Below the pieces are notes generated by a model. That model saw nothing but the letters and a program-made list of their open reading frames with translations. It did not search any database and was not told where the DNA came from. The position numbers were made by a program, and so were the translations under genes. Below are positions 14,672-56,178 of a stretch of 64,000 nucleotides of DNA, one piece after another (the stretch's first letter is position 1; each line of letters begins with the position of its first letter). The stretch comes from Alloyangia mangrovi (GTDB taxonomy: Bacteria > Pseudomonadota > Alphaproteobacteria > Rhodobacterales > Rhodobacteraceae): contig NZ_NTHN02000016.1 in NCBI RefSeq assembly GCF_002300555.2, positions 1 to 64,000 on the forward strand, written 5' to 3'.

Positions 14672-14750
14672 GCCGCCTGCGGCGGCGAGGGGCGCCGCCC
14701 CTCTTGGCCTGCGGCCAATTCACCCCGGGATATTTGCACCTAGAAGAAAG
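14672..14750 (-). repeat. Dispersed two-hairpin element, copy A
   Basis: On the minus strand: CTTTCTTCTAGG, TGC, AAATATCCCGGGG, then hairpin 1 (TTGGCC gca GGCCAA), hairpin 2 (AGGGGC ggc GCCCCT) and a further GCCGCC/GGCGGC hairpin. It lies between the divergent lipoprotein and lepA genes. Confidence 0.85.
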
Positions 14751-14917
14751 CCTTGGGCCGCGCCGGGAAATCGCCCGGAACCAGCGCCGTGCGGGGCTTC
14801 GCCGTGCGGCGGCGACGGGAAGGACCGCGGGAGGCGCGGGCGGATGGGCGCAGCCGCGCCGCCTGCCCTTCGATCCGGCTTGACCGGACGCCAAAACCCT
14901 TACATATCGGGCCAATC

Positions 14918-16720
14918 ATGACCGATCTCGCGCATATCCGTAACTTCTCCATCGTTGCCCACATCGACCACGGGAAATCCACCCTGGCCGACCGGCTGAT
15001 CCAGCTCACCGGCACCGTCGCCGAACGCGACATGCAGGAGCAAATGCTCGACTCGATGGATATCGAGCGCGAGCGGGGCATCACCATCAAGGCCAACACC
15101 GTCCGCATCGAGTACCCGGCGCAGGACGGCGAGACCTACGTGCTGAACCTGATCGACACGCCCGGGCACGTCGACTTCGCCTATGAGGTCGCGCGCTCTA
15201 TGCACGCGGTCGAGGGCTCGCTGCTGGTGGTCGACGCCACGCAGGGTGTCGAAGCGCAGACGCTGGCGAATGTCTACACGGCGATCGACGCCGACCACGA
15301 CATCGTGCCGGTGCTGAACAAAGTCGACCTGCCTGCTGCAGAGCCCGAGCGGGTGAAGGAGCAGATCGAGGACGTGATCGGCATCGACGCTTCGGAGGCC
15401 TGCCTGATCTCGGCCAAGACGGGCATCGGCATCCCCGACGTGCTGGAAGCCATCGTCAAGCGCCTGCCCGCGCCGCCCGAAGGGGATCGCAACAAGCCGC
15501 TGAAGGCGATGCTGGTGGATTCGAAGTACGACCAGTACCTCGGCGTGATCTGTATCGTGCGGATCATCGACGGCGTGCTGAAGAAGGGCGACCGGATCCG
15601 GATGATGAAGACCGGCGGCACCTATGATGTCGACGACGTCGGCGTCTACCGGCCGCAGATGACCAACGTGAAGGAACTCGGCCCGGGCGAGATCGGCTAT
15701 CTCAACGCCTCGATCAAGCAGGTCCGCGACACCCGCGTCGGTGACACGATCACCCACGAGAAGAAGCCCTGCGCCGAGCCGCTGCCGGGCTTCAAACCCT
15801 CGGTTCCGGTGGTGTTCTGCGGGCTCTTCCCCGTCGATGCGAACGACTTCGAGGACATGCGCGACGCCATCGAGAAGCTGGCGCTGAACGACGCCTCCTT
15901 CACCTTCGAGATGGAGACCTCGGCGGCGCTCGGCTTCGGCTTCCGCTGCGGCTTCCTCGGGCTGCTGCACCTTGAGGTGATCCGCGACCGCCTCGAGCGC
16001 GAGTACAACATCGAGTTGATCACCACCGCCCCCTCGGTGATCTACCACCTCTATACCAAGGACGGCGAGCGCCGCGACCTGCACAACCCCGCCGACATGC
16101 CCGACATGTCGACCGTGGACCACATCGAGGAGCCGCGGATCAAGGCCACCATCATGGTGCCCGACGAGTATCTCGGCGACGTCCTCAAGCTCTGCCAGGA
16201 GCGGCGCGGCATCCAGATGGACCTGACCTACGTCGGCGGCCGCGCGATGACGGTCTACGACCTGCCGCTCAACGAGGTGGTCTTCGACTTCTACGACCGC
16301 CTGAAGTCGGTGACGAAGGGCTACGCCTCGTTTGACTATGAGATGATCGGCTACCGCGAGGACAACCTCGTGAAGATGTCGATCCTGGTCAACGACGAGC
16401 CGGTCGACGCGCTGGCGATGATGGTGCACCGCGATCGCGCCGAGATGCGCGGCCGGGCGATGTGCGAGAAGCTGAAAGAGCTGATCCCTCGCCACATGTT
16501 CAAGATCCCGATCCAGGCGGCGATCGGCGGCAAGGTGATCGCCCGCGAGACTCTGTCGGCGATGCGCAAGGACGTGACCGCCAAGTGCTACGGCGGCGAC
16601 GCCACCCGGAAGAAGAAGCTGCTCGAGAAGCAGAAGGCCGGCAAGAAGAAGATGCGGCAATTCGGCAAGGTCGAAATCCCGCAGGAGGCCTTCATCTCCG
16701 CGCTCAAGATGGACAGCTGA
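14918..16720 (+). CDS. lepA: Elongation factor 4 (LepA)
   Basis: A 600-residue translational GTPase, full length for the family. The G domain shows AHIDHGKST (G1), DTPGHVDF (G3) and NKVDLP (G4); the C-terminal domain ends in the Lys-rich segment with RKKKLLEKQKAGKKKM typical of LepA. It acts on ribosomes and helps with back-translocation or late 30S assembly. The start at 14918 (MTDLAHIRN) is where all family members begin. A terminator hairpin follows the stop. Confidence 0.97.
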   Translation: MTDLAHIRNFSIVAHIDHGKSTLADRLIQLTGTVAERDMQEQMLDSMDIERERGITIKANTVRIEYPAQDGETYVLNLIDTPGHVDFAYEVARSMHAVEGSLLVVDATQGVEAQTLANVYTAIDADHDIVPVLNKVDLPAAEPERVKEQIEDVIGIDASEACLISAKTGIGIPDVLEAIVKRLPAPPEGDRNKPLKAMLVDSKYDQYLGVICIVRIIDGVLKKGDRIRMMKTGGTYDVDDVGVYRPQMTNVKELGPGEIGYLNASIKQVRDTRVGDTITHEKKPCAEPLPGFKPSVPVVFCGLFPVDANDFEDMRDAIEKLALNDASFTFEMETSAALGFGFRCGFLGLLHLEVIRDRLEREYNIELITTAPSVIYHLYTKDGERRDLHNPADMPDMSTVDHIEEPRIKATIMVPDEYLGDVLKLCQERRGIQMDLTYVGGRAMTVYDLPLNEVVFDFYDRLKSVTKGYASFDYEMIGYREDNLVKMSILVNDEPVDALAMMVHRDRAEMRGRAMCEKLKELIPRHMFKIPIQAAIGGKVIARETLSAMRKDVTAKCYGGDATRKKKLLEKQKAGKKKMRQFGKVEIPQEAFISALKMDS

Positions 16721-56067: not shown

Positions 56068-56116
56068 GCGCGGGGTTATGCGGGATCGCGGGCGCGCCGT
56101 CGAGGGCGCGGGATGT

Positions 56117-56178
56117 GGGGGCTCTGCCCCCGAGGCGCGGATGCGCCTCTCCCCCGAGATATTTTTGCCTAGAAGAAG
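56117..56178 (-). repeat. Dispersed two-hairpin element, copy F
   Basis: On the minus strand: CTTCTTCTAGG, CAA, AAATATCTCGGGGG, hairpin 1 (AGGCGC atcc GCGCCT), hairpin 2 (GGGGGC aga GCCCCC). It begins 13 bases after the stop of the transglycosylase gene. Confidence 0.9.

What the first reader, a model, noticed from the sequence alone, without database searches (positions are those of the whole stretch)
14672..56178. A dispersed intergenic element with a fixed 29-base block and two covarying hairpins (seven copies)
Seen in sequence: seven intergenic copies (14672-14750, 38451-38512, 39489-39549, 41783-41851, 53466-53524, 53559-53620, 56117-56178) share the order TTTCTTCTAGG, three variable bases, AAATATCCCGGGGG, hairpin 1, hairpin 2. 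Hairpin 1 differs in sequence in nearly every copy (TTGGCC/GGCCAA, GTCCGCC/GGCGGAC, TTCGC/GCGAA, GCCGCC/GGCGGC, AGGCGC/GCGCCT, CCCGCC/GGCGGG) yet always pairs. That pattern of compensating change suggests selection on RNA or cruciform structure. Three copies start 2 to 13 bases after a stop codon on the same strand. There is no T-tract in the place needed for a classical terminator. I do not know a named family that fits.
Basis: partly seen in the sequence, partly recalled or inferred. Interest (0 to 1): 0.78.

Follow-up and report, generated by a model that had tools for sequence, protein, structure and literature searches.

The report
Gene-end hairpin repeats with genome dialects
A family of mostly marine bacteria carries up to a hundred or more copies of a small hairpin element just after the ends of genes; close species keep the copies in the same places, but a short identifying "tag" in them is swapped genome by genome, which suggests an unknown partner molecule that reads the tag.

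Summary
The element is real: 182 head matches in this genome against 1 for the reversed control. Hairpin 1 covaries strongly; hairpin 2 does not vary, so it is no evidence. Of the seven copies, one has a second head type and one lacks the standard hairpin 2. No Rfam match. The generic core occurs in 87 of 129 Rhodobacteraceae genomes but 2 of 240 over the class, one of them this genome.

0 of 119 copies lie inside a called gene; 105 of 117 placed copies have a gene 3' end on at least one side; divergent gaps are under-used. In close relatives 59 of 60 copies found sit on the same sites in the same orientation, so they are not hopping. The head tag is nearly uniform in a genome but replaced in place between genomes: where this genome has AGG, G015 has AGG-type in 8/9 and G013 in 9/11, but G005 0/10, G010 0/8, G014 0/9; AGG genomes are not a clade. 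In the sister genome G009 copies are decaying.

Best reading: a bidirectional gene-end hairpin module whose head is read by an unidentified, dispensable trans-acting factor. No RAYT transposase in this genome.

The parts
14672..14750 (-). Copy 1: AGG head (block 14722-14748), 4-G run, hairpin 1 of the TGAATTGGCC class, hairpin 2; between a called small gene (-) and lepA (+). The part 14672-14688 lies beyond hairpin 2 and is outside what I call the element.
   Evidence: orthologues with another head in G005 and G014
38451..38512 (+). Copy 2: second family, head CTTCTCTTTC with core AAATACGCC, hairpins 1 and 2; between argF and gnd, read backwards after argF
   Evidence: same family at the site in G005, G013, G014
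39489..39549 (-). Copy 3: AGG head, hairpins 1 and 2; about 12 nt after the argD stop, before argF
   Evidence: orthologues in G015, G005, G009, G013, G014
41783..41851 (+). Copy 4: AGG head and hairpin 1, non-standard second palindrome; between divergent truA (-) and a ycjX-like gene (+)
   Evidence: orthologues in seven relatives
53466..53524 (+). Copy 5: AGG head, hairpins 1 and 2; between hrpB and meaB, hairpin side facing copy 6
53559..53620 (-). Copy 6: AGG head, hairpins 1 and 2; directly after the hrpB stop
56117..56178 (-). Copy 7: AGG head (one mismatch in the core), hairpins 1 and 2; after the stop of a lytic transglycosylase gene, before hrpB

Best explanation
It is a gene-end module of Rhodobacteraceae with two working parts. 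(1) One or two GC-rich hairpins that can form in RNA from either strand. They sit after stop codons, between convergent genes and between genes reading the same way, and most likely define, attenuate or protect mRNA 3' ends in both directions. (2) A head of about 22 nt, two fixed blocks around three free bases, read by a sequence-specific trans-acting factor, probably at the DNA level because both orientations relative to genes are about equally used. A genome has one to three head types (dialects). When the dialect changes, heads at long-standing sites are replaced in place; when the system is lost (G009) the copies decay. Shown by calculation: distribution, place, conserved sites and orientation, hairpin 1 covariation, dialects, decay. 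Inferred: action on RNA 3' ends, and the existence and nature of the factor.
For: Hairpin 1 covariation, 0 of 500 shuffles. 0 of 119 copies inside called genes; convergent gaps over-used (47 of 117 copies against 47 of 290 gaps of 60 nt or more) and divergent ones under-used (12 of 117 against 81 of 290); forward and reverse between same-direction genes 26 and 32. Independently annotated plasmid copies: 7 of 7 have a gene 3' end on a side. 59 of 60 relatives' copies on own sites, same orientation. Tags all-or-none by genome: among listed sites of one hairpin class, AGG in 21 of 21 own and 11 of 14 G013 sites, 0 of 15 in G005, 0 of 17 in G016. Fixed head positions at least 98% identical around three free bases with 27 forms in 105 copies; those bases are inherited site by site among AGG-type genomes (64% identity against 37% shuffled, p=0.0006). 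44 of 46 CTTCTAGG 8-mers in 534 kb are heads. G009: 4 intact copies against 91-136 in own and five other close genomes, relics more diverged in head (p=0.002) and less stable in fold (p=0.003) than in five others pooled.
Against: No factor is known and none was found. No RNA data. The T tail after hairpin 2 is weak and the same in all gene contexts (p=0.48). Canonical terminator-like hairpins are not excluded by the element: seen at 11 of 26 convergent and 10 of 18 same-direction gene ends with it, against 30 of 86 and 20 of 160 without (reversed-sequence controls 3, 3, 4, 12). 12 of 117 copies lie between divergent genes. Two plasmid copies stand inside apparent operons. At two sites heads of own and G005 differ at six or seven places beside nearly unchanged hairpins (14722, 15077), which looks like block replacement more than point-wise selection. 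The G009 contrast is uneven: 5 of its 13 relics are within two changes of a head consensus, and G010, which has an intact set, scores nearly as badly (mean 3.4 against 3.8) because its tag variants and misaligned segments count as mismatches.
Confidence: 0.5

Rival explanations
1. Relic or slow REP-like repeats: non-autonomous palindromic repeats spread long ago by an unknown enzyme, with heads still homogenised among resident copies by copying (gene conversion, template switching at replication, or an HUH-type enzyme); no host function needed.
For: High copy number, extragenic palindromes, head-to-head pairs; head-only replacement beside kept hairpins at two sites; skewed use of the free triplet (TCC in 24 of 105).
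Against: No Y1 transposase in this genome and in only 1 of the 10 element-rich genus genomes (3 of 20 in all). 59 of 60 relatives' copies on old sites. Free triplets inherited site by site. Hairpin 1 sequences differ from copy to copy while pairing is kept.
Confidence: 0.25
2. Ordinary intrinsic terminators of high-GC Rhodobacteraceae, alike only because terminators are alike.
For: Gene-end place; some single-hairpin copies carry a clear T run; T enrichment after hairpin 2.
Against: A 22-nt head fixed in sequence and genome-specific has no role in an intrinsic terminator; weak T tail, not dependent on orientation; other terminator-like hairpins occur at the same gene ends; copies inside apparent operons.
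Confidence: 0.12
3. A DNA-level site only: the head binds a nucleoid or topology protein (or gyrase) at gene ends and the palindromes matter as cruciforms or single-strand hairpins.
For: Orientation nearly free, convergent gaps over-used, where positive supercoils gather (established knowledge).
Against: No binding data; conserved general nucleoid proteins would not explain tag changes between species of about 90% identity.
Confidence: 0.1
4. A DNA uptake (or gene-transfer) signal like the DUS of Neisseriaceae, whose species dialects and inverted pairs it resembles.
For: Dialects per genome, two or three dialects in one genome, inverted pairs at gene ends, as in the passages I saw of PMC3630211.
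Against: Low density (92-136 intact copies per 4.7-6.4 Mb in rich genomes, against thousands of DUS in about 2 Mb in those passages); 0 of 119 inside genes while DUS are often intragenic; ComEC present in 20 of 20 genus genomes, including G009 and the element-free G002, so no contrast; covarying hairpins are not part of a DUS.
Confidence: 0.03

Closest known systems
REP/BIME palindromic repeats (E. coli, Pseudomonas; REP-RAYT systems)
   Same: High-copy extragenic palindromes after genes, under-used between divergent genes (the last recalled), in pairs of opposite orientation, genome-specific families.
   Different: No GTAG or CGTC tag at a fixed place in the aligned copies (the tags are named in the abstract of PMC3733652 seen); no RAYT in this genome; sites and orientation conserved between species; long bipartite head that is swapped in place.
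Intrinsic transcription terminators
   Same: GC-rich hairpins at gene ends; T enrichment after hairpin 2.
   Different: No T run as a rule, and a fixed, genome-specific 22-nt head.
DNA uptake sequence dialects of Neisseriaceae
   Same: One or two species-specific versions of a short signal filling a genome; inverted pairs at gene ends (passages of PMC3630211).
   Different: Intergenic only here, far fewer copies, tied to covarying hairpins.
RIB/RIP elements of E. coli (REP palindromes with an IHF site; recalled, from no call)
   Same: Palindromes joined to a protein-binding site in extragenic DNA.
   Different: The presumed binding site here changes between close species; the partner is unknown.

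Membership tests
REP / REP-RAYT | Extragenic palindrome in high copy | tested here: met
   182 head matches; 0 of 119 inside called genes
REP / REP-RAYT | Associated Y1 (RAYT) transposase in the genome | tested here: not met
   PF01797: 0 matches in this genome, 3 of 20 in the genus, 1 of them element-rich; control genomes rang in 5 of 14
REP / REP-RAYT | GTAG or CGTC tetranucleotide beside the palindrome | tested here: not met
   Not at a fixed place in 84 aligned copies
REP / REP-RAYT | Mobility: new sites in close relatives | tested here: not met
   1 of 60 copies elsewhere, in a distant relative; two regions only
Intrinsic terminator | GC-rich hairpin at gene 3' ends | tested here: met
Intrinsic terminator | T run directly after the hairpin | tested here: not met
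   Enriched T at positions 1-5 but no run; single copies with a run exist
Intrinsic terminator | Stops transcription | not testable with these tools
   needs Term-seq or reporter
DNA uptake sequence (DUS) | Species dialects uniform in a genome | tested here: met
   within cut lists and two regions
DNA uptake sequence (DUS) | Occurs in coding sequence too, in great number | tested here: not met
   0 of 119 in genes; 134 intact copies in 5.5 Mb
DNA uptake sequence (DUS) | Receptor and uptake preference | not testable with these tools
   ComEC in 20 of 20 gives no contrast; no receptor sought
Any Rfam family | Covariance model match at gathering score | tested here: not met
   Only a tRNA in the window

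The most novel reading that the evidence does not exclude
A family-wide 'dialect' system: an unknown, dispensable and perhaps horizontally exchanged trans-acting factor reads a bipartite 22-nt tag at a hundred or more gene ends per genome; when a genome takes up another dialect, the tags at long-standing sites are rewritten in place, without moving the elements and sometimes without touching their hairpins. Close relatives can thus carry nearly the same element map written in different codes.
Probability: 0.35. Interest if true: 0.88.

Novelty: new variant of a known kind. Interest (0 to 1): 0.72.

Why it matters
It would show how gene ends are marked in a large, ecologically important bacterial family, and it offers a natural experiment: the same sites in species of about 87-93% nucleotide identity with different tags, and one species in which the system has lapsed. 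That makes the search for the partner factor, and for the way a hundred sites change together, directly testable.

Tried and rejected
Tried without result: a letter search of papers for the motif (985 unspecific papers, 20 listed). Paper searches for Rhodobacter or Rhodobacteraceae repeats, terminators, REP elements and Ruegeria sRNAs: no description in the listings I saw (12-20 rows of longer lists). In PMC12306157 the five genus names I tried did not occur, in PMC3733652 none of six terms; passages of PMC8632094 name two other Rhodobacterales motifs, neither a dispersed repeat. A too specific pattern matched 5 of 120 family genomes. A phage search gave three partial mycobacteriophage matches. 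The first gene calls were self-trained and had wrong strands; I retrained on Pfam-confirmed seeds.

Considered and rejected or left open: the head as T-tract of an upstream hairpin (10 of 41 copies against 3-7 at shifted offsets: weak); a T tail that depends on orientation (no); an alternative pairing of the block G run with hairpin 2's C run as the reason why G-run lengths agree (94 of 104 against 68 by permutation): predicted pairing probability 0.014 against 0.93 for hairpin 2, so duplication or slippage may explain it, left open; G-U against A-C asymmetry in hairpin 1: too few imperfect pairs and a scoring that disfavours A-C; mutational repair of quasi-palindromes as the only cause of hairpin 1 pairing (498 of 518 scored pairs Watson-Crick): G009 relics are not kept perfect, about 5% in my view. 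Model R1 was built but no search was run with it.

Rows dropped or handled apart: 2 of 119 copies at stretch ends; 3 of 107 without a parsable hairpin 2; 15 of 119 not fitting the run-length pattern. In one search my detector missed the own copy at 41785; I added its seven orthologues by rule. Own sites with synteny but no detected copy: G009 13, G015 5, G010 5, G005 3, G014 3, G013 2, G016 1; several of these are changed copies that the detector misses, not clean absences. G018's 20 kb gave no copy. 'AGG-type' includes GGG and AGT. The sample of this genome (790 kb of 5.53 Mb) was partly fetched because it holds AGG copies, so 102 of 104 AGG or GGG is biased upward; one search is not, but its list stops at about 150 rows, covers eight of 15 matching genomes (the last in part) and one hairpin class; I counted its sites by eye, merging double hits.

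Full report
Observation. The seven places all hold the element, with the corrections given in the observation check. The head pattern occurs 6 times in the window against 0 in 100 shuffles and 182 times in the 5.53 Mb genome against 1 for the reversed pattern. The nearest named relative by the hrpB protein is Salipiger pallidus (81% identity), and a same-genus genome (G003) has a contig of the same length as that record, so the genus is probably Salipiger (inference).

Anatomy. On the strand of the head: TTCTTCTAGG, three free bases, AAATATCCC, a run of mostly 4-6 G, hairpin 1, hairpin 2 (commonly GGGGGC-NNN-GCCCCC). In 107 copies with at most two mismatches, positions 1-10 and 14-26 are each at least 98% identical, while the three free bases take 27 forms in 105 copies with at most one mismatch. 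Behind the same head there are also copies with a single hairpin and copies continuing CCCCGCCGGAGGC; most of the latter stand head-to-head with another copy a few tens of bases away. In 534 kb, 44 of 46 CTTCTAGG 8-mers are heads.

Structure. Hairpin 1 has dozens of sequences yet pairs: on 26 equal-length copies and on 84 copies, 0 of 500 shuffles reach the observed covariation score, share of paired cells, or number of cells changed on both sides; two coarser measures on the 84 copies do not exceed shuffles. Hairpin 2 pairs do not vary, so they are no evidence. The alignments are by MAFFT, not fitted to the structure. The G runs before hairpin 1 and at the start of hairpin 2 have matching lengths in 94 of 104 copies (permutation mean 68, maximum 81 of 2000); folding does not predict the alternative pairing this might suggest, so the cause is open.

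Place. With gene calls trained on Pfam-confirmed genes, 0 of 119 copies are inside a gene; a few overlap a called end. Of 117 placed copies 47 lie between convergent genes, 58 between genes of one direction (26 forward, 32 reverse), 12 between divergent genes; gaps of 60 nt or more number 47, 162 and 81 of 290. Orientation relative to the gene is nearly free, but a gene 3' end on one side is the rule (105 of 117). Seven plasmid copies with independent annotation agree; an eighth region had no annotation. Two of the seven lie between neighbouring genes of apparent operons (an ABC transporter; phnK-phnL), which argues against obligate termination.

Distribution. The generic core with hairpins is found in 87 of 129 Rhodobacteraceae genomes, up to 158 copies, and in 2 of 240 genomes over the class, of which one is this genome and one has a single copy; the reversed control is 0 throughout. 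It is uneven: 42 of the 129 have none by this exact pattern. Plasmid matches are in 19 records, none under an annotated gene (two records had no annotation, one hardly any); the eight whose taxonomy I opened are Rhodobacterales.

Same sites, other dialects. I compared the window and a second region (C88) with eight relatives each (six at 60 kb, two at 20 kb). Of 60 copies found in relatives, 59 sit on own sites in the same orientation. The head changes genome by genome: TTCTTCTAGG in own, G013 and G015; CTTCCACATGG-like in G005 and G010; CTTCCTCTTGG in G014; TTCTTCTGACC in G016; CTCTGGTT with core AAATACCTC in G019. In G007, G018 and G019 three families occur side by side, each tag with its own core. 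Tag and core go together: AGG with TATCCC, CTTTC with TACGCC, TGGTT with TACCTC, TACGT with TACTCC. A second family (CTTTC) is shared by several genomes, and some sites have changed family. Three other genera show their own tags (G020, G024, and mostly G021), within the limit of three mismatches of that search. A tree of 38 genes (46.7 kb) groups G010 with G013, own with G009, and G015 with G014 and G005 (supports 0.989-1), so neither the AGG nor the CACATGG genomes form a clade; recombination between species could disturb that tree. At two sites (14722, 15077) own and G005 differ at six or seven places in the head while the hairpin part is nearly unchanged. Yet among AGG-type genomes the three free bases are inherited site by site (64% against 37% shuffled, 15 pairs, p=0.0006), so heads are not continually copied over as blocks.

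A lapsed system. G009, the closest relative (92.8% over the 38 genes), has 4 intact copies where own and five other close genomes have 91-136. At 13 alignable sites its copies are still recognisable but changed in head and hairpins; head mismatches and fold energies are worse than in five relatives pooled (p=0.002 and 0.003). The contrast is uneven: 5 of the 13 are within two changes of a head consensus, one further site is a clean gap, and G010 scores nearly as badly for reasons of method. This fits loss of something that keeps the copies in order elsewhere, and speaks against a purely mutational origin of hairpin pairing.

Interpretation. The hairpins and their place point to work on RNA at gene ends in both directions: 3'-end definition, attenuation or protection. 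That step is inferred; my terminator tests were negative or mixed. The head points to a trans-acting reader: fixed blocks, free spacer, dialects, decay. That too is inferred; no factor is known. RAYT is absent here and ComEC shows no contrast. I call it a new variant of the broad kind 'dispersed gene-end palindromic element': it works in part like REP/BIME and shows dialects like DUS, but is a member of neither by the features tested.

Limits. Gene calls are mine; the orthology covers two regions; tag counts come from cut lists; the genome is a draft; nothing here measures RNA, binding or uptake. Papers: passages of PMC3630211, PMC12306157 and PMC8632094, a term search without hits in PMC3733652, search listings for the rest; no paper was read whole. 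That the element is not described in print rests only.

Noticed in passing
window 38462-39511 (-) and 36847-38391 (-): The argF and gnd reading frames match their families only to profile positions 267 of 307 and 419 of 476; the last 63-67 residues do not match, which suggests a frameshift near each 3' end (assembly error or real).
   Followed up: no
L054 (JAFKDC010000007.1): A record titled Enemella evansiae (to my knowledge an actinobacterial name) holds a Rhodobacteraceae-like hrpB (74% identity) and a copy of the element: probably a mislabelled record.
   Followed up: no
L031-L050 and others; e.g. C88:21166/21214: Head-to-head pairs of a full copy and a CCCCGCCGGAGGC copy; at C88:21166/21214 both heads carry the same changed tag in G005 and in G010.
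   Followed up: partly
G005 and G010 at the orthologue of C88:32525: These two non-sister genomes share the unusual head CACTTGTCGA at the same site, hinting at exchange of element alleles between species or an ancestral state.
   Followed up: no
104 copies of this genome: The G-run length before hairpin 1 equals that at the start of hairpin 2 in 94 of 104 copies; cause unknown.
   Followed up: partly
534 kb of this genome: 8-mers with CTAG of the same composition as the head are rare (60 such 8-mers, mean count 2.5, the highest ones being the head itself or overlapping it), so the AGG tag keeps an otherwise rare tetranucleotide.
   Followed up: no
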